Positions 45,490 to 53,464 of a stretch of DNA of 64,000 nt are shown one piece after another. The stretch is from Candidatus Bathyarchaeota archaeon. GTDB lineage: Archaea > Thermoproteota > Bathyarchaeia > TCS64. Location: positions 1 to 64,000 of the forward strand of contig JAPKYO010000012.1 of the NCBI GenBank assembly GCA_026394265.1, written 5' to 3'. The translations under genes and the position numbers were made by a program. Below the pieces are notes generated by a model. It worked only from the letters and a program-made list of their open reading frames with translations. It was not told where the DNA came from and made no database searches. Within the stretch, counting starts at the first letter, position 1, and every line of letters starts with the position of its first letter.

Positions 45490-46413
45490 TTAGATGTCGA
45501 GCTTCAGGGCTTCCTTGAGGCCCTTGTAGCGGTTCCTGATGGTGACCTCGGTCACGCCCGCGGCGTCCGCGATCATCTTCTGCGTCCTCTTCTCCTCATT
45601 CATCACGCAGGCGATGTAGAGCGCGGCTGCGGCCAGGCCCATCGGGTCCTTGCCGGCGGTGGTGCGCTTCTTCTCCGCCTGCTCGAGGAGGTTGACGGCC
45701 GTCTGCTGCGTCCTCTCACCGATGTTGACCTTCGCGGCGATCTTAGGAACCCTGTACTGGGCCTTCGGGATCGGCATCTGGATGGTCAGCTCGCGTAGGA
45801 GTAGCCTGTAGCAGCGGGCGAGGTCCTTCTTGTCGATGGTTGAGACCTTGGCGAGTTCGCGTAGGGTCCTCGGGGTGCCGGTTGCGCGACACGCGGCGTA
45901 GAGGCTGGCGGCTGCGATGGCGCTGATGCTGCGGCCCCTGACGAGGCCCTTCTCGAGCGCCTTCCTGTAGATGACGGCTGCGCGCTCCTTGACCTGCTTG
46001 GGGATGTGGAGCTTGTCGCAGAGTCTGCTGAGCTCGGTCATGGCGTGGCTGAGGTTCCTGTCGACGCTGCTCTGGTAGCTGCTCCTTATGTGCCACTTCT
46101 TGAGGCGGAGCATCTGGAACATGGTCTTGCTTGGTATGGTGCGGCCGAAGGCGTCCTTGCCGACCTGCCCGATCATGGTGCTGAGGCCCTTGTCGTGCAC
46201 GCTGAAGCTTAGAGGCATACCAACGCGGCTGCGGCTCTCCCTCTCGTCCTGGCTGAAGGCCCTCCACTCGGGGCCATCGTTCAACATGTTATCCGCCATG
46301 ACGAGCCCGCATCCACCGCAGATCTTCTCGCCGGTGTCGTTATCGATGATGACGTTCTTTGATCCGCACTCTGGGCACGTGTCGCTGGAGGCTTGCTCGG
46401 TCTTGACTATCAT
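45490..46413 (-). CDS. tfb: transcription initiation factor TFB
   Basis: 307 residues from ATG 46413. Zinc ribbon CPECGSKNVI...CGGCGLVMAD near 13-40, B-finger region DGPEWRAFSQDERESRSRVGMPLSFSVHDKGLSTMIG near 47-84, then two cyclin-like repeats, each with ISAIAAASLYAACRATGTPRTLRELAKV near 170 and GLAAAALYIACVMNEEKRTQKMIADAAGVTEVTIRNRYKGL near 260-300. It recruits RNA polymerase to TATA/BRE promoters. Only TFB gene in the window. Its 5' region has a hairpin and an AT-rich promoter. Confidence 0.97.
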   Translation of the reverse strand: MIVKTEQASSDTCPECGSKNVIIDNDTGEKICGGCGLVMADNMLNDGPEWRAFSQDERESRSRVGMPLSFSVHDKGLSTMIGQVGKDAFGRTIPSKTMFQMLRLKKWHIRSSYQSSVDRNLSHAMTELSRLCDKLHIPKQVKERAAVIYRKALEKGLVRGRSISAIAAASLYAACRATGTPRTLRELAKVSTIDKKDLARCYRLLLRELTIQMPIPKAQYRVPKIAAKVNIGERTQQTAVNLLEQAEKKRTTAGKDPMGLAAAALYIACVMNEEKRTQKMIADAAGVTEVTIRNRYKGLKEALKLDI

Positions 46414-46450
46414 TGTTTTTTCCCTTTTCCTACGCTCTTCTACGCGGAAT

Positions 46451-46470
46451 ATTCCGATTAAGATCGGAAT
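46451..46470 (-). promoter_or_regulatory. perfect inverted repeat in the tfb 5' region
   Basis: ATTCCGAT-TAAG-ATCGGAAT, eight pairs and a four-base loop, 38 bases before the tfb start. With a TATA-like ATTATATACT at about 46512-46523 it would be in the transcript or overlap its start. A TFB autoregulatory site is possible. Confidence 0.45.
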
Positions 46471-46508
46471 TGGGTTCCGCGACCCATAGAATATGGCATC
46501 AGTCATCA

Positions 46509-46526
46509 ACTAGTATATAATACTTA
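46509..46526 (-). promoter_or_regulatory. TATA region of tfb
   Basis: AT-rich ACTAGTATATAATAC; the string ACTAGTATW recurs at about 46578. The 336-base region 46414-46749 also contains the promoter of the divergent phosphorylase gene (CACTTTAATC about 30 bases before its ATG) and no gene. Confidence 0.4.
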
Positions 46527-46749: not shown

Positions 46750-47610
46750 ATGAGTGATATCCCCCGTGTTGCCATAGCCGTCATCGGTGGCTCCGCGAAC
46801 CTGAACTCCAAGTTCCCCGAGGACTACCCGGGCGTCGAGGTCATAACTAAGGACGTGGTCTACGACACCCCCTTCGGGCCGTCTGCCCCCTTCACACACG
46901 CTAGGATCAACGGGCGCGAGTTCCTCAGCGTCCCCTTCCACGGCATAACCAAGGCTATCAGGAATACGGAGCCTAACGGCGCCGGTGAGCGCGTCTTCTA
47001 TGTGCTCTGGAAGGCGGGGGTCAAGAAGATACTCGGGACAGCCCTCTGCGGCTCGTCAAACAGGCTCCTCGACCCAGCCGACGCCGTGGTTCCCGACGGC
47101 TTCGTCGACTACACGACCAAGAGATGCCAGGCATTCTTCAGGGCGCTAGAGTCGAAGGGCGTCGAGGGGGAGAGGACGAGTTACCGCCTCCACCAGGCAT
47201 TCTGCCCCGAGTTGAGCAGGAGCCTCTATATGAACGTGAAGAAGGCGGGGTTCCCGCGCGTCTTCCAGCGCGGCGTGGTGGGCGTCGCCGAGGGCCCCCA
47301 CCTCGAGTCCCCGGACGAGATCAGGATCAGGTACACGAACGCGGGGATCGATGTGGTCACCATGAACCTCGTGCCTGAGATCTACTTCGCCCGCGAGATC
47401 GGGGCCTGCTACGCCTGCGTCGAGGTCGTCTCCAACTACGGGGAGGGATGCGTCTCCACGACGTGGGAGGGGAAGATGGCGTTCAGCGACTTCCAGGCGA
47501 AGTGGGCGCGCCCAACGGGGCAGGCGCTCCTCGACACCGTCGCCGAGATGGACGCCGGGAGCGAGGCGTGTGGCTGCCACACATACAGGTGGAAGTCGAT
47601 CTTCGGCTAG
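46750..47610 (+). CDS. purine nucleoside / methylthioadenosine phosphorylase family protein
   Basis: 286 residues. IAVIGGSANLNSKFP near 9-23, DTPFGPSAPFTHARINGREFLSVPFHG near 38-64, AEGPHLESPDEIRIRYTNAGIDVVTMNLVPEIYFAREIGACYACVEVVSNYGEG near 178-230. The layout matches trimeric MTA/PNP phosphorylases, but the usual GIIGGSG is GGSANL and the final GCSEACGCHTYRW-like tail has extra Cys, so substrate specificity is uncertain (5'-methylthioadenosine or inosine). Promoter is leaderless-type. Confidence 0.82.
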   Translation: MSDIPRVAIAVIGGSANLNSKFPEDYPGVEVITKDVVYDTPFGPSAPFTHARINGREFLSVPFHGITKAIRNTEPNGAGERVFYVLWKAGVKKILGTALCGSSNRLLDPADAVVPDGFVDYTTKRCQAFFRALESKGVEGERTSYRLHQAFCPELSRSLYMNVKKAGFPRVFQRGVVGVAEGPHLESPDEIRIRYTNAGIDVVTMNLVPEIYFAREIGACYACVEVVSNYGEGCVSTTWEGKMAFSDFQAKWARPTGQALLDTVAEMDAGSEACGCHTYRWKSIFG

Positions 47611-47683
47611 AAGCCACGACCACCCGCCACATCACCGCTTTTCGACGCCTTTCACGCCCCCGCATAAGATTTAAGTGTCCCAA

Positions 47684-47713
47684 GTCGGTTTACAACCTCT
47701 GGTTTACAACCAG
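47684..47713 (+). promoter_or_regulatory. paired operator boxes before the ArsR-like regulator
   Basis: Two GGTTTACAACC boxes at 47687-47697 and 47701-47711, 14 bases apart start to start, directly downstream of a TATA-like TAAGATTTAA at about 47664-47673. The second sits in CTGGTT-TAC-AACCAG (47699-47713), which abuts the GTG start. The same pair recurs before the thermosome gene. A repressor here would cover the transcription start. Confidence 0.75.
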
Positions 47714-48426
47714 TGTCGAACAAGAAAAAGACCCAGAGGAAGGACTTCGAGTCAGTCGTAGGCGTCCTCGGGAACCCCGTTCGACGCAACATCATAAAGA
47801 AGCTCAGCGAGGGCCCCGACTACACCCTCAGGCTGAGCAACGAACTCAACATCCACCAGCAGCTCGCCGCAAAGCACCTCAAGGTCATACAGGACGCCGA
47901 GCTCGTCGACGTCGTCCGCCAGAAGAGCAACATCGGCGCGGACAAGAACGTCTTCCACCTCAACAAGTTCTACAGCCTGCAGATAGATTTCAGCCCAAGC
48001 CTCTACAACGAGAGGTTGATCAGCTTCAACAACCCCCACCAGTGGATACAGGAGGACAACTACATGGAGAAGCTGGAGGAGCAGGTGAAGGACATAGATG
48101 ATGAGAAGCTCGACGTCGAGGACGTGTCCCCCCTCCGCCAGATAGTCGAGTTGATAGACGACGAACTCGATGGACTCGAGAAGAGGCGCGCCCGGCTACT
48201 CTACATACGCAACCTGGCCCTCGGCGCCGCACAGGGCGCCGTCGAGGAGCTGGGCCGGATAAAGCAGCAGATCATCCAGCGCCTCATGGACCTCGGCCCC
48301 ACGAGCATCGAGGCAATGAGTAAAACCTTCCAACTGAAGGAGGCCGACGTCAGGGACGTTGTGTCTGAGCTTGAGAAGGAGGGTCTCGTCAGCCGGGACG
48401 AGGATGTTATAAGCCTGAACACGTGA
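47713..48426 (+). CDS. ArsR/winged-helix transcriptional regulator, probable thermosome regulator
   Basis: 237 residues from GTG 47713. N-terminal winged helix: VVGVLGNPVRRNIIKKLSEGPDYTLRLSNELNIHQQLAAKHLKVIQDAELVDV near 15-67. A central charged coiled coil near 115-175 (EKLEEQVKDIDDEKLDVEDVSP, DELDGLEKRRARLLYIRNLALG) and a C-terminal second winged helix, LMDLGPTSIEAMSKTFQLKEADVRDVVSELEKEGLVSRD. Operator-like boxes shared with the downstream chaperonin gene suggest autoregulation and control of protein folding, comparable in logic to Phr of Pyrococcus, though a homology link is not shown. Confidence 0.82.
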   Translation: MSNKKKTQRKDFESVVGVLGNPVRRNIIKKLSEGPDYTLRLSNELNIHQQLAAKHLKVIQDAELVDVVRQKSNIGADKNVFHLNKFYSLQIDFSPSLYNERLISFNNPHQWIQEDNYMEKLEEQVKDIDDEKLDVEDVSPLRQIVELIDDELDGLEKRRARLLYIRNLALGAAQGAVEELGRIKQQIIQRLMDLGPTSIEAMSKTFQLKEADVRDVVSELEKEGLVSRDEDVISLNT

Positions 48427-48460
48427 CCTATTCTAGGCCATCGAAAGGTTTTTTATTACA

Positions 48461-48490
48461 GTCGGTATACAACTGTCGGTTTACAACCAG
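48461..48490 (+). promoter_or_regulatory. paired operator boxes before the thermosome genes
   Basis: GTCGGTATACAAC (48461-48473) and GTCGGTTTACAACCAG (48475-48490), the same 14-base spacing as at 47684-47713. They lie just downstream of a TATA-like TTTTTATTA at about 48450-48458, so a bound regulator would block initiation. Confidence 0.75.
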
Positions 48491-48502
48491 AAGTGGTACA
48501 CC

Positions 48503-48595
48503 ATGATGCGTTGCATATCGACCCTGTTCACCGTCTCAACGGAGGAGGGGGTCCTTGGTGTATCCCTTGAATATCAAATGGAGATGAATGAATGA
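48503..48595 (+). CDS. 30-codon leader ORF overlapping the thermosome start
   Basis: ATG 48503 to TGA 48593-48595, encoding MMRCISTLFTVSTEEGVLGV and ten more residues. Its stop overlaps the ATG of the chaperonin gene as ATGA, so translation could be coupled. GGAGGAGG occurs inside at about 48540-48547. Whether it is translated is unknown. Confidence 0.4.
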   Translation: MMRCISTLFTVSTEEGVLGVSLEYQMEMNE

Positions 48596-50256
48596 GCGCA
48601 CAAGGTGGAAATCAGCCCATATATATCCTCAAGGAAGGAACCGAGAGGAACACGGGCAACGACGCTCGCGGTAACAACATCATGGCCGCGAAGATCGTCG
48701 CCGAGGCCGTAAAGACAAGCCTCGGCCCCAAGGGAATGGACAAGATGCTTGTCGACAGCTTCGGCGACGTCACCATCACGAACGACGGCGCGACGATGCT
48801 GAAAGAGATGGACATCCAGCACCCCGCCGCCAAGATGATGGTAGAGGTCTCGAAGACTCAGGACTCTGAGGTCGGCGACGGCACGACGTCAGTCGTCGTC
48901 CTCGCGGGTGAACTCCTCGGCAAGGCCACGGACCTCATGGACAAGAAGGTCCACCCGACCGTCATCATCGACGGCTACAGGGCGGCACAGGAGGAGGCAC
49001 TGAAGATCCTCGACGACATAGCCATCAAAGTCAAGCCAAAGGACAAGGAGACCCTGAAGAGGGTCGCCAAGACCACGATGTCGACGAAACTCGTGAGCAG
49101 CCACAGCGGCTACCTCTCCGAGATCGCCGTCGACGCCGTCCTACAGGTCGCCGAGGAGGCGAACGGTGGGATGAAGGTCGACCTCGACATGATCAAGGTC
49201 GAGAAGAAGCCCGGAGGCTCGATGACCGACACGGTCCTCGTCAAGGGGCTCATCATCGACAAGGAGGTCGCACACAGCGACATGCCCAAGCTCGTCAAGA
49301 AGGCGAAGATCGCGCTCCTTGACGCCGCTATGGAGATCGAGAAGACCGAGTTCACGAGCAAGATCAGCATCGAGACGCCCAGCGAGATGCAGGCCTACCT
49401 CGATGAGGAGGAGAAGATGCTCCGCGACATGGTCAAGAAGGTGAAGGAGGCCGGTGTGACCGTGCTCCTCTGCCAGAAGGGCATCGACGACATGGTTCAG
49501 CACTTCCTCGCACGCGAGGGCGTCATGGCCGCGCGCAGGCTCAAGAAGAGCGACATGGAGGCCCTCGCAAAGGCGACGGGCGCCAAGGTCGTCAGCAGCG
49601 TCGACGAGCTAAGCGCCTCCGACCTCGGCTACGCCGACTCGGTCGAGGAGAAGAAGATCGGCTCGGACAAGCTCATCTTCATCGAGGGGTGCAAGAACCC
49701 CAAGGCCGTCAGCATACTCATACGCGGCGGAACCGAGAGGATCGTTGACGAGGCCGAGAGGAGCATGCACGATGCTCTCTGCGTCGTCAAGGACGTCGTT
49801 GAGACGCCCAAGATCGTCGCCGGCGGGGGCGCCGTCGACATCGAGATCGCCCGGAAGCTCCGCGCATACGCCGAGAAGCTCAAGGGCAGGGAAAGACTCG
49901 CGGTGGCAGCCTTCGCGGACGCCATCGAGGTCCTCCCGACGACCCTCGCCGAGAACGCCGGCATGGACCCCATAGACGCTATGGCAGAGCTGCAGAGCCG
50001 CCACGCCAAGGGCGAGAAGTGGGCCGGAGTCGAGGCGATGGAGGCGAAGATCGCCGACATGGAGAAGCTCGAGATCATCGAGCCCATGGTCGTCAAGGCA
50101 CAGGCAATAAAGTCCGCCACGGAGGCGGCGACGATGCTCCTAAAGATCGACGACGTGATAGCGTCGACGAAGAGCAAGGGCCCGCCGCCCGGCGCAGAGG
50201 GCATGGGCGGAATGGGCGGTATGGGAGGCATGGGTGGCATGCCCCCCATGATGTAG
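48592..50256 (+). CDS. thsA: thermosome (group II chaperonin) subunit
   Basis: 554 residues from ATG 48592. Equatorial, intermediate and apical domains in the usual order: [68 protein letters not shown] near 43-110 contains the ATP site; later [17 protein letters not shown] near 405 and the ATP-binding [14 protein letters not shown]-terminal tail [16 protein letters not shown] is the usual Gly-Met repeat lining the ring cavity. It folds proteins in an eightfold or similar double ring. Forms an operon with the second subunit 10 bases downstream and follows the ArsR-like regulator. Confidence 0.97.
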
Positions 50257-50266
50257 GTGAAACATA

Positions 50267-51913
50267 ATGGCATACCAAGGTAACCAGCAGGTAATCGTCC
50301 TCAAGGAGGACACGAAGAGGAGCCGCGGACGGGACGCGCGCCGCAGCAACATGATGGCGGGCCAGATCATAGCCGAGGTACTCAAGACGACCCTCGGCCC
50401 CCGCGGCATGGACAAGATGCTCGTCGACGGCCTGGGAGACATAACCATCACCAGCGACGGCGCAAAGGTGCTCGAAGAGATCGACGTACAGCACCCAGCG
50501 GCCAAGATGATCATCGAGGTCGCCAAGACCCAGGACAAGGAGGTCGGCGACGGCACCACAACGTCCGTCGTCTTCGCCGGTGAGCTACTGAAGAAGGCAG
50601 GCGAGCTGCTCGAGCAGGAGATTCACCCGAGCATCGTCATCAGCGGCTACCAGAAGGCAGCCGACAAGGCCCTAGAGGTCCTCAACAAGGTCGCCATGCC
50701 CGTTGACCTCAAGGACAGGGAGACCCTGCTCAAGCTCGCCAGCACCTCTATGAGGAGCAAGGCGGTCAGCAGCGACAGGGCACACCTCGCAGAGGTCGTC
50801 GTTGACGCGGTCATGCAGATCGTGGAGAAGCGCGGAAGCGAGACGATCGCCGACGTCGACAACATCCAGATCGTGAAGAAGGAGGGCAAGAGCCTCAAGG
50901 AGACCACGATGATCAAGGGAATCATCGTCGACAAGGAGGTCGTCCACGAGGGCATGCCCAAGAAGCTCAAGAACGCGAAGATCGCCCTCCTCAACGCCGC
51001 GATGGAGATCGAGAAGACCGAGATCGACGCCGAGATCAGGATAAAGACCCCCGACGGCGTCAAGGCCTTCCTAGACCAGGAGACCGAGATGCTGAAGAAG
51101 ATGGTCGACCAGGTCGCTGCATCGGGCGCTAACGTGTTGCTCTGCCAGAAGGGCATCGACGACGTCGCACAGCACTTCCTATCGAAGGCTGGCATCATGG
51201 CGGCTCGTCGCCTCAAGGAGAGCGACATGGAGAAGCTCGCCAAGGCGACCGGAGGCAAGATCGTAAACAACCTCAAGGACCTTAAGAAGGCGGACCTCGG
51301 TGTCTGCGGTCTCGTCGAGGAGAGGAAGGTCGGCAACGACAAGCTCATCTTCGTCGAGGAGTGCAAGAACCCCGCGAGCGTCGCCATCTTCATCCGCGCA
51401 GGGCTGGAGAGGATGCTCGACGAGGCGGAGAGGAGCCTGAACGACGCGCTCTACGTCGTGAGCGACGTTGCCGAGGTGCCGAAGATGGTGCCCGGCGGCG
51501 GCGCGATCGAGATGGAGCTGGCGAAGGAGGTTCGCGGCTACGCGCGCCAGGTCGGCGGGCGGGAGCAGCTTGCCATCGAGGCCTTCGCTGACGCGCTTGA
51601 GGTCATCCCGAGGACGCTGGCGGAGAACGCTGGCCTAGATCTCCTCGACACGATGGTGGCGATGAAGGCTGCCCACGAGAAGAAGAATGGCCTCAAGATG
51701 GGGGTCAACGTCTTCGAGGGCGGCGTCATCGACATGCTCAAGGAGGGCGTCATCGAGCCCATGGTGGTCAAGCAGCAGGCGATCAAGAGCAGCATCGAGG
51801 TCGCCAGCATGATCCTGAGGATCGACGACGTCGTGGCCGCGAGGAGCAGCGGTGGCCCAGGCGGCCCCGGCGGTGCGGGCGGTATGCCCCACGGCGGCGG
51901 CGACGACGAGTAA
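50267..51913 (+). CDS. thsB: thermosome (group II chaperonin) subunit, second
   Basis: 548 residues from ATG 50267. ATP site: [68 protein letters not shown] near 43-110. [19 protein letters not shown] near 408 and C-terminal [20 protein letters not shown], a different tail from the first subunit. Paralogous to thsA; the two likely form a hetero-ring. A GGTGA ribosome site precedes it. The run of T at 51920-51928 should terminate the operon. Confidence 0.97.
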
Positions 51914-51919
51914 ACCAGA

Positions 51920-51928
51920 TTTTTTTTA
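51920..51928 (+). terminator. oligo-T terminator after the thermosome operon
   Basis: Nine T residues seven bases after the thsB stop codon; archaeal-type termination signal. Confidence 0.55.
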
Positions 51929-51994
51929 AACCGGGAGCTAATACGCTTCCTCATCAAATAATTCTCGATACTTGGCCCGTTCAGCGGGCTGTTC

Positions 51995-52393
51995 TCATGC
52001 AACTATGCCGGCTAGTCGTTGCGCGACGATTTTCCCGATGAGCACGCCGAGGATGACGAGGCCGTTCGTGGCTAGTAGGTACGAGGCGAAGCGCATGCTG
52101 TCCCCCTGCTCGAGGAGCCTGAAGGACTCGTAGCCGAATGTGCTCATGGTGGTGTATGCTCCGAGTACGCCGATGGTGAGGAGTGTCCTCGTCTCCGGGG
52201 AGACCCCTGCTGTGTACTCGGAGAGGTACATGATTGTGCCGAGGGCGAGTGTGCCGGTGAAGTTGACGGCGAGGGTCCCGAGGGGGAACCCGGATTGGCT
52301 GCTCCCCGCCCACCCGCTTATCAGGTAGCGGAGGATGGCGCCGACCATGCCGCCGAGGCCGATGAGAATGAGCGTGTTGATGTTTATCGTCAA
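51995..52393 (-). CDS. crcB: fluoride ion channel FluC/CrcB
   Basis: 132 residues, four helices. GMVGAILRYLISGW near 15-28, FPLGTLAVNFTGTLALGTI near 36-54 with the conserved Asn, and LGAYTTMSTFGYESFRLLEQGD near 77-98 with GxxTTxSTF are the CrcB signatures. Dual-topology fluoride exporters work as dimers. No fluoride riboswitch pattern is visible upstream on the minus strand (52394-52450). Confidence 0.93.
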   Translation of the reverse strand: MTININTLILIGLGGMVGAILRYLISGWAGSSQSGFPLGTLAVNFTGTLALGTIMYLSEYTAGVSPETRTLLTIGVLGAYTTMSTFGYESFRLLEQGDSMRFASYLLATNGLVILGVLIGKIVAQRLAGIVA

Positions 52394-52450
52394 GGTTAGC
52401 CCCGTGTCGTCTTCCCTCGTGGAAGTTGGAGGGGATTTAAGCGTTGAGGG

Positions 52451-53464
52451 TCAGCCGACGACCTTTTTGATGAGCCTGAGGTGGTTGCCGCCGAGTATGA
52501 GGCGGATGTACTCCTCCGAATATCCGCGTTTGACGAGTTCCTCGGTTATGGCGGGCATCTTGGAGGCGTCCTCCAGCCCCGCCGGTGTGGCGGGGATGCC
52601 GTCGAAGTCGCTGCCGAGTCCAACGTGCTCGGGGCCGACGAGGTCCACTATGTGATCGATGTGGTCGACGAGTGTCTCTACGCTGGGTTTGGTCTTGTGG
52701 ACGAAGTCGGGTGCGAAGTTCATACCCATGACGCCCCCCTTCTCGGCGAGTGCCTTGATCATCTCATCCGTCATGTTTCGGGGGTGGCTGCAGACGGCGC
52801 GGCTGTTGCTGTGGCTCGCCACGATTGGGTCCTTCGATGCCTCCAGTACGTCCCAGAAGCCGGCGTCGCTCAGGTGGCTCACGTCAACTATCATGCCGAG
52901 CCTGTTCAGCTCCTCGACGACCTCGACGCCGAGCCTGCTCAAGCCGCCCTTGGTGCGGGTGTCTGCGACTCCGTCGGCGAGGAGGTTTCGGAGGCTGTGG
53001 ACGAGTCCGACCATCCTGACGCCGAGGCGGTGGTAGACGCGGAGCATGCTTAGGCGCCCCTCGATGACGTCTGCGCCCTCGATGCTCAGCATCGCCGCGA
53101 TCCTGCCCTCCTCGTTTGCCTGCATTACCTCGGCGTAGGTGGTGACGGGTTGGACGAGTTTGGGGTACTTTTCGCACTCGGTGTAGAAGGCCTCTATCAT
53201 CTCCATCGCCGTGCGGAGTGGGTAGGCGGGTGTGGGGTCACGTTCGCTGCTTATGGCGAAGACCTGGAGGTCTACTCCGCCCTCCTTGAGGCGGGGGAGG
53301 TCTATGTGGCCGAGCTTCGACCTTTTCCCGAAGCCGACCTTGCTTCTATCCCCCCACATGCTGTCTCGGGGGCGCGTGAACTGGGGGAGTAGGCACTTGA
53401 GTGTGTCGCAGTGGGTATCCACCACGAGGGCCTGCCTGTGGAGACGTAGAGGGTACTCATCCAA
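52451..53464 (-). CDS. renal-dipeptidase family (M19) metallo-dipeptidase
   Basis: 337 residues from TTG 53464; TTG 53515 would add a less typical N terminus. VVDTHCDTL near 16-24 holds the metal His-x-Asp, AAMLSIEGADVIEGRLSMLRVYHRLGVRMVGLVHSLRN near 123-160 gives the Glu ligand and following motif, VSHLSDAGFWDVLEASKDPIVASHSNSRAVCSHPRNMTDEMI near 200-240, and VGLGSDFDGIPATPAGLED near 290. Cleaves dipeptides, some including D-residues or cysteinyl-glycine. This fits peptide use by the cell. Confidence 0.9.
   Translation of the reverse strand: MDEYPLRLHRQALVVDTHCDTLKCLLPQFTRPRDSMWGDRSKVGFGKRSKLGHIDLPRLKEGGVDLQVFAISSERDPTPAYPLRTAMEMIEAFYTECEKYPKLVQPVTTYAEVMQANEEGRIAAMLSIEGADVIEGRLSMLRVYHRLGVRMVGLVHSLRNLLADGVADTRTKGGLSRLGVEVVEELNRLGMIVDVSHLSDAGFWDVLEASKDPIVASHSNSRAVCSHPRNMTDEMIKALAEKGGVMGMNFAPDFVHKTKPSVETLVDHIDHIVDLVGPEHVGLGSDFDGIPATPAGLEDASKMPAITEELVKRGYSEEYIRLILGGNHLRLIKKVVG

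What the first reader, a model, noticed from the sequence alone, without database searches (positions are those of the whole stretch)
47684..48490. Identical paired operator boxes before a regulator gene and the thermosome genes
Seen: GGTTTACAACC-type boxes in pairs, 14 bases apart start to start, at 47687/47701 and 48464/48478, each just downstream of a TATA-like element. The gene between them encodes a two-winged-helix ArsR-like protein with a central coiled coil. The arrangement predicts an autoregulated repressor controlling the chaperonin operon. Heat-shock control of chaperonins in most TACK archaea is not well described, so this would be a new regulator.
Basis: partly seen in the sequence, partly recalled or inferred. 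Interest (0 to 1): 0.75.

Follow-up and report, generated by a model that had tools for sequence, protein, structure and literature searches.

The report
Archaeal repressor guarding the chaperonin genes
An uncultured archaeon carries a two-winged DNA-binding protein whose likely docking sites sit at the start of its own gene and of the next-door chaperonin genes, and relatives of this protein sit beside other heat-shock genes, which points to a heat-shock switch that seems not to have been described.

Summary
The boxes are real. Both promoters carry GTWTACAAC-N5-GTTTACAAC. The pair stands before the regulator and before the thermosome genes in the window and in all 12 related loci found. In 11 relatives' genomes a whole-genome scan finds it at these promoters only (23 of 23 matches). 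All 11 genomes with an orthologue have it; of 245 other genomes of the class 2 have a match, both inside coding frames.

The protein is a Phr/SurR-type ArsR regulator without SurR's CxxC. The register equals SurR's published long motif. A sister family (about 30% identical) mostly lies beside hsp20 or grpE-dnaK, with a palindrome of the same geometry at most of those promoters; in one distant genome it marks only two unlinked thermosome genes.

Best reading: an autoregulated heat-shock repressor binding over the transcription start. Binding, repression and heat response are inferred. Papers seen say Phr and HSR1 regulons lack thermosome genes.

The parts
47669..47675 (+). TATA-like element of the regulator promoter (ATTTAAG)
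   Evidence: sequence; aligned in relatives; inferred start of transcription near 47698
47687..47697 (+). operator box R1 (core GTTTACAAC 47688-47696)
   Evidence: present in 12 of 12 related loci, some with a changed base
47701..47711 (+). operator box R2 (core GTTTACAAC 47702-47710), ends 1 base before the GTG start codon
47713..48426 (+). regulator, 237 aa: N-terminal ArsR-type winged helix, further strand pair, long helix, C-terminal winged helix; Phr/SurR-like; no cysteine
48443..48456 (+). BRE/TATA-like element of the thermosome promoter (GAAAGG TTTTTTAT)
   Evidence: conserved in 13 promoters; inferred start of transcription near 48479
48464..48474 (+). operator box T1 (core GTATACAAC 48465-48473)
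48478..48488 (+). operator box T2 (core GTTTACAAC 48479-48487)
48493..48501 (+). third operator sub-site T3 (GTGGTACAC), inverted half relative to T1; T2-N5-T3 has the 9-5-9 geometry of the sister family's palindromes
48503..48595 (+). 30-codon leader ORF that starts 1 base after T3 and whose TGA overlaps the thermosome ATG (ATGA)
   Evidence: an ORF of this position in 11 of 12 loci
48592..50256 (+). thermosome subunit 1
50267..51913 (+). thermosome subunit 2, 10 bases downstream on the same strand

Best explanation
The 47713 protein is an autoregulated transcriptional repressor of the two thermosome genes. It binds a tandem operator of 9-bp sub-sites spaced by 5 bp (GTWTACAAC-N5-GTTTACAAC, plus GTGGTAYAC at the thermosome promoter) that lies over the predicted transcription start, so a bound protein would stop RNA polymerase from joining the TBP/TFB promoter complex, as reported for Phr. 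Under heat or misfolding stress it lets go and both the chaperonin and the repressor are made, so the response switches itself off again. The proposed trigger is heat-labile binding or loss of the folded repressor; titration by the chaperonin is the rival. Shown by comparison: the protein family, the sites, their exclusivity in relatives' genomes, their co-occurrence with the protein, and the link of the wider family to hsp20, grpE-dnaK and thermosome genes. Inferred: binding, sign of control, heat as the signal, the release mechanism.
For: Box pairs at both promoters in 13 of 13 loci, window included. Only these two promoters genome-wide in 11 genomes: 23 of 23 matches; the extra 3-mismatch matches (16) do not exceed the control (20), nor do single boxes outside the locus (23 against 32). 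Co-occurrence: 11 of 11 orthologue genomes against 2 of 245 others, those two inside coding frames (Fisher p 1e-17, not corrected for kinship). Relatedness to Phr and SurR by sequence and by fold. Register equal to SurR's long motif. Of 20 sister loci examined, 12 are directly downstream of an hsp20-like gene and 5 directly upstream of grpE-dnaK, with a 9-5-9 palindrome at most of those promoters. In G061, G062 and G063 the palindrome also marks an unlinked hsp20. In G535 it marks exactly the two unlinked thermosome genes. A recognition-helix lysine goes with a C or G next to the spacer: 32 of 32 half-sites against 9 of 22.
Against: No binding, expression or heat data exist for this organism here. 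The window clade's operator starts with a direct repeat, unlike the sister family's palindrome. Two sister promoters (L051, L060) show no palindrome at up to 1 mismatch, only sub-sites seen by eye. The position over the start predicts repression, but SurR also activates genes, its own included. The window's own genome could not be scanned. G010 has 8 single boxes outside the locus against 2 for its control, so a slightly larger regulon there is possible. The orthologue is narrow: in an even draw of 398 genomes of the phylum only G001 has it, and the other 19 matches are weaker, sister-type. The genomes named in titles are metagenome-assembled.
Confidence: 0.8

Rival explanations
1. The repressor is a folding client of the thermosome, as HrcA is of GroEL (recalled): free chaperonin keeps it active, and misfolded protein titrates the chaperonin away so that the repressor fails. 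Heat is sensed through the chaperonin level, not by the repressor itself.
For: In relatives' genomes the regulon is just the repressor and the chaperonin, the minimal wiring for such a loop; 5 of 20 sister loci have a regulator-grpE-dnaK layout like that recalled for bacterial hrcA-grpE-dnaK.
Against: Nothing in the sequences shows that the protein needs the thermosome; for Phr, the nearest solved relative, a fall in protein level and loss of repression on heating are reported (that passage does not speak of chaperonin).
Confidence: 0.25
2. It responds to redox, sulfur or another metabolite as SurR does, and the chaperonin is a general stress target.
For: Operator register equals SurR's; SurR matches over nearly the full length.
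Against: SurR's CxxC is absent: 0 of 130 listed family members have a CxxC and 16 of 130 have any cysteine; SurR's cysteine segment CMEC aligns to EGPD here. The loci examined lie beside chaperone genes.
Confidence: 0.08
3. The protein acts as an activator, or as both activator and repressor, at these sites.
For: SurR activates its own gene and hydrogen genes and represses sulfur genes.
Against: In the window clade the sites lie between the TATA-like element and the start codon, over the inferred start of transcription, where Phr is reported to keep RNA polymerase from binding.
Confidence: 0.1
4. Thermosome output is set mainly at the RNA level, through the leader ORF or a hairpin in the roughly 100-nt leader, and the boxes are minor.
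For: Leader ORF reaching the thermosome start in 11 of 12 loci, per-locus shuffle fractions 0.000-0.062; the segment at the third sub-site can pair with downstream leader sequence more than in shuffles, combined p 3e-4 over 10 loci; leaders of L001, L004 and L005 fold better than most shuffles.
Against: The boxes are far more conserved than the leader; 7 of 10 leaders folded have z above -1.2 and 5 of 10 lie near 0; the third sub-site is explained by the operator register; in G535 one thermosome gene starts about 15 bases after its operator, which leaves no room for such a leader.
Confidence: 0.1
5. The boxes are a chance or inherited promoter feature unrelated to the protein.
For: The 12 loci come from one class and share ancestry.
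Against: Sites survive down to 61% protein identity while flanks do not; complete co-occurrence; palindromes of the same geometry in the sister family and at unlinked targets.
Confidence: 0.03

Closest known systems
Phr of Pyrococcus furiosus (PDB 2p4w), heat-shock repressor
   Same: Best solved relative by sequence and by fold (210 columns, 18% identity); heat-shock gene targets; autoregulated; site over the transcription start.
   Different: Operator elements TTTA / TGGTAA / AAAA over 29 bp are not the boxes here; Phr regulon is said not to include thermosome genes; score far below the NCBIfam Phr cut-off.
SurR (PF0095, PDB 2qlz/2quf), sulfur regulator of Thermococcales
   Same: Two winged helices and central domain, matched over profile positions 17-235; long motif GTTn3AACn5GTT has the same spacing as the boxes; recognition-helix core AKHLK shared.
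   Different: No CxxC; linked genes are chaperones, not hydrogenase or sulfur genes; below the NCBIfam SurR cut-off.
HSR1 of Archaeoglobus fulgidus
   Same: Autoregulated archaeal heat-shock repressor whose gene is in an operon with hsp20.
   Different: Site CTAAC-N5-GTTAG; no thermosome in its regulon; its sequence was not compared here.
HrcA-CIRCE of bacteria
   Same: Works alike at the level of wiring: repressor gene beside chaperone genes, chaperonin operon with a conserved operator (recalled; one search gave a search listing only).
   Different: No HrcA domain match in the Pfam scan; different operator (CIRCE recalled, not compared by a call).

Membership tests
ArsR/SmtB-type winged-helix regulators (PF01022, PF12840) | domain match above curated cut-off | tested here: met
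   HTH_20 31.4 bits (cut-off 27), HTH_5 28.7 (cut-off 22)
Phr (NF053602) | NCBIfam score above 320 bits | tested here: not met
   40.5 bits
Phr | fold of 2p4w | tested here: met
Phr | TTTA/TGGTAA/AAAA operator over the start | tested here: not met
   a different motif, at the same position
Phr | DNA binding relieved by heat | not testable with these tools
   needs protein
SurR (NF047699) | NCBIfam score above 250 bits | tested here: not met
   46.1 bits
SurR | redox CxxC in the first winged helix | tested here: not met
   0 of 130 listed homologues; aligned segment EGPD
SurR | site GTTn3AACn5GTT | tested here: met
   window 47688-47710 fits exactly; 48465-48487 with GTA for the first GTT (motif)
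HSR1 | sequence relatedness and CTAAC-N5-GTTAG site | not tested
   no HSR1 sequence was compared; the published site differs from the boxes seen
HrcA | HrcA domain | tested here: not met
   no HrcA family among Pfam matches up to E 0.05

The most novel reading that the evidence does not exclude
A general archaeal counterpart of HrcA-CIRCE: one Phr/SurR-derived repressor family in Bathyarchaeia and relatives governs three chaperone systems (Hsp20, GrpE-DnaK, thermosome) through one evolving 9-5-9 operator, and the window's lineage has narrowed it to a closed loop between the repressor and the chaperonin, possibly with the chaperonin itself as the sensor and with a coupled leader ORF for translation.
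Probability: 0.3. Interest if true: 0.85.

Novelty: new variant of a known kind. Interest (0 to 1): 0.7.

Why it matters
How archaea outside the Euryarchaeota control heat-shock genes is open in the papers seen here: no thermal-responsive regulator is known in Crenarchaeota, no conserved protein-binding motif was found at Sulfolobus heat-shock promoters, and the two known archaeal heat-shock repressors are said not to control thermosome genes. This gives a defined protein, a defined operator and a two-promoter regulon that can be tested in a tube, plus a family whose sites and recognition helices seem to vary together.

Tried and rejected
Single-box counting in the window: not significant alone. 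Wider regulon: 3-mismatch pairs and single boxes are at or below control level. RNA hairpin or thermometer in the thermosome leader: found by eye, tested by folds of 10 leaders and by pairing against shuffles in 12 leaders (combined p 3e-4 for the 14-nt segment over 10 of them, a set that still holds near relatives; a control segment, box 2, gave p 0.08); kept only as a lead, because the conserved 5' side is better explained as the third operator sub-site. Rfam over 47000-52500: one match up to E 1, a snoRNA family below its gathering score (19.1 against 38 bits, E 0.18). Redox sensing through a CxxC: rejected. Viral contigs: 66 pattern stretches, no relative. First structure model with 51 close relatives: poor, mean pLDDT 57.7; replaced by one with 75 sequences including the sister family, pLDDT 88.4. 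Phylum-wide palindrome scan with 2 mismatches: 36 of 398 genomes, fewer than its control pattern (about 64 by my count of the rows), so most hits are noise; the hits with up to 1 mismatch (G061, G062, G063, G203) are all regulator genomes, and none of the 24 loci fetched anew by that scan (L159-L182; other hits had no locus) shows a heat-shock query match. The VIA look is dominated by single winged-helix domains and tests little beyond residues 1-96.

Limits of counts: one search drops L001 (13-bp spacing) from the regulator logo; one search's second figure drops L008 and L010; one search uses operators that I picked from the loci, partly by eye, 6 of 13 thermosome-clade loci, and related loci, so its p value is optimistic; one search used a thermosome start 3 bases late for L006 and L007, so their ORF stops, printed at -2, overlap the start as in the others; sister matches weaker than L065, from G103 down, were not examined, and of the weaker ones only G340 was.

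Full report
Observation. The cores are GTTTACAAC 47688-47696, GTTTACAAC 47702-47710, GTATACAAC 48465-48473 and GTTTACAAC 48479-48487, so each pair is GTWTACAAC-N5-GTTTACAAC. One box is no rarer than chance in the window (8 matches against 6.9 expected); the paired register is what stands out.

Protein. The ORF 47713-48426 (237 aa) matches HTH_5 and HTH_20 above the curated cut-offs. Its best solved relatives are Phr and SurR of Pyrococcus furiosus (with the deeper alignment A4, E 3e-22 and 3e-17). A model of mean pLDDT 88.4 shows a first winged helix (to about 83), a further strand pair (87-104), a long helix 135-176 and a second winged helix 182-235; Phr and SurR are the top fold matches. The superpositions are loose over the full length (rmsd 7.1 and 18.1), so the domains are placed differently. 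Searches found 288 and 309 homologues at their cut-offs, of which 130 were listed. Those 130 hold no CxxC, and 16 have any cysteine.

Conservation of the sites. A scan of GTDB genomes found 12 loci in 11 genomes, all titled Bathyarchaeota, 61-92% identical. A thermosome gene follows the regulator in every locus whose contig reaches it; L003 ends first. Box pairs stand before the regulator in 12 of 12 and before the thermosome in 12 of 12 (L003's promoter is there although its gene is cut off), besides the window. Deviations: the regulator pair of L001 is 13 bp apart; L002, L006, L007 and L012 have one or two changed bases in a regulator box; L001, L003, L004 and L007 have a changed first thermosome box. 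The near-invariant columns are the boxes, parts of the TATA/BRE of the thermosome promoter and a third element GTGGTAYAC, 14 bp after the second box and only at the thermosome.

Exclusivity. In the 11 genomes GTWTACAACN5GTTTACAAC with up to 2 mismatches gives 23 matches, 0 for the reversed control: 11 before the regulator, 12 between it and the thermosome gene or the contig end, none elsewhere. That is 2 per genome, except G001 (1, since its other pair has 13-bp spacing) and G003 (4, from two similar contigs). At 3 mismatches 16 further matches appear against 20 for the control. Single boxes GGTWTACAACY outside the locus number 23 against 32 for the control, though G010 has 8 against 2.

Co-occurrence. 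Of 256 genomes of the class, 11 have an orthologue (E 3e-117 or better). With up to 1 mismatch the pair occurs in all 11 and in 2 of the other 245. Both of those are inside open frames far from any heat-shock query: G256 in a 218-aa ORF and G159 in a 449-aa frame. The control pattern hit 3 genomes. In an even draw of 398 genomes of the phylum, 20 match the protein profile at E 1e-15 and only G001 is an orthologue.

Sister family. The same search found a second group, about 30% identical (L047-L065; L111). Of these 20 loci, 12 lie 25-52 bp downstream of an hsp20-like gene and 5 lie directly upstream of grpE-dnaK; L058, L064 (contig end) and L111 do neither. L048, L049 and L050 are near copies. 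Pfam confirms Hsp20 (L052), GrpE and HSP70 (L048, L063); other hsp20 calls rest on translated similarity or on the shared C-terminal sequence. G340, examined besides, also has hsp20-regulator, with two palindromes. The promoters carry a palindrome with the same 9-5-9 geometry: CTATACAAN-N5-NTTGTATAG in 7 of 12 hsp20 promoters at up to 1 mismatch (L052, L053, L056, L057, L059, L061, L062), also at the hsp20 start of G104 and directly before the regulator of L058; GTATACTAC-N5-GTAGTATAC or a close form at L047-L050, L063, L064 and the hsp20 of L065. L051 and L060 have only sub-sites seen by eye, and L054 lacks the upstream sequence. In G061, G062 and G063, whose regulator is beside grpE-dnaK, the palindrome also stands before an unlinked hsp20. 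In G124 it stands before hsp20-regulator, with grpE-dnaK on the other strand about 0.7 kb away. In G535 the regulator stands alone, and the only two palindromes at up to 2 mismatches (0 in the control) stand directly after the TATA-like elements of two unlinked thermosome genes. Box T2 with the third element of the window clade has this same geometry and is matched at up to 2 mismatches in 11 of 11 genomes; further 2-mismatch matches in that scan are about as many as its control's.

Specificity. The recognition helix reads xQQLAxKHL in the 130 thermosome-clade proteins and xQQLVxKHL in 117 of 120 sister proteins listed; several hsp20-linked sister loci have A, S or T in place of that lysine. 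In the operators that I compared, proteins with lysine at window residue 54 have C and G flanking the spacer in 32 of 32 half-sites; proteins with A, S or T there in 9 of 22 (sister family alone 20 of 20 against 9 of 22). SurR, which also has AKHLK, has C-N5-G in its motif. This is what a DNA-reading residue would give, with the caveat that sites were partly picked by eye and loci are related.

Mechanism. If transcription starts 25-27 bp after the TATA centre (general archaeal rule, recalled), it starts near 47698 and 48479. The boxes then cover about -10 to +13 at the regulator and -14 to +23 at the thermosome. A protein bound there should block RNA polymerase, as reported for Phr. The two-promoter regulon makes a closed loop of repressor and chaperonin. 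Whether the repressor senses heat itself or through the chaperonin cannot be told from sequence.

Leader ORF. Between the third sub-site and the thermosome gene, 11 of 12 loci have an ATG/GTG 1-6 bases after the sub-site that opens a 23-32-codon ORF; its stop overlaps the thermosome start in 9 and lies just before it in 2 (L002, L011). In the window it is 48503-48595, with an ATGA overlap. The fraction of shuffled leaders with so long an ORF is 0.000-0.062 per locus; L012 (0.262) lacks it. Peptide sequences differ between lineages, so its translation, not its product, may matter (coupling). This is a separate finding, not followed further.

Literature. Passages of PMC10653856, PMC10746257, PMC9133787, PMC12162507 and PMC8595942 were read; no whole paper. 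They name only Phr and HSR1 as archaeal heat-shock regulators, say that their regulons lack thermosome genes and that none is known in Crenarchaeota, and call SurR unique to Thermococcales. Searches for a Bathyarchaeota or thermosome repressor showed none in their listings from this open library; subscription journals are mostly outside it.

Noticed in passing
window 48503-48595 and 10 of 11 related leaders tested: Short leader ORF starting 1-6 bases after the operator and ending at or overlapping the thermosome start codon in 11 of 12 loci, with peptide sequence that differs between lineages.
   Followed up: partly
window 48493-48565 and relatives: The GTGGTAYAC segment can pair with sequence near the end of the leader RNA more often than in shuffles, possible hairpin.
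   Followed up: partly
L065/L154 (genome G124): Heat-shock cluster: hsp20-regulator with a palindromic operator, and grpE-dnaK on the other strand about 0.7 kb away.
   Followed up: partly
L051 and L060, hsp20 promoters: By eye, three sub-sites in 14-bp register, like the thermosome promoter of the window.
   Followed up: partly
proteins P0018, P0023, P0033, P0036, P0038, P0051: Database versions of the regulator start too early and translate the operator itself as VYNxxFTT.
   Followed up: no
L003 and L004 (genome G003): One MAG holds two similar copies of the locus on two contigs, perhaps two strains binned together.
   Followed up: no
window 46750-47610: Upstream gene is MTA-phosphorylase-like but far below the curated cut-off (109 against 275 bits).
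   Followed up: no
window 45490-46509, minus strand: A TFB (TFIIB-like) gene lies near the thermosome cluster.
   Followed up: no
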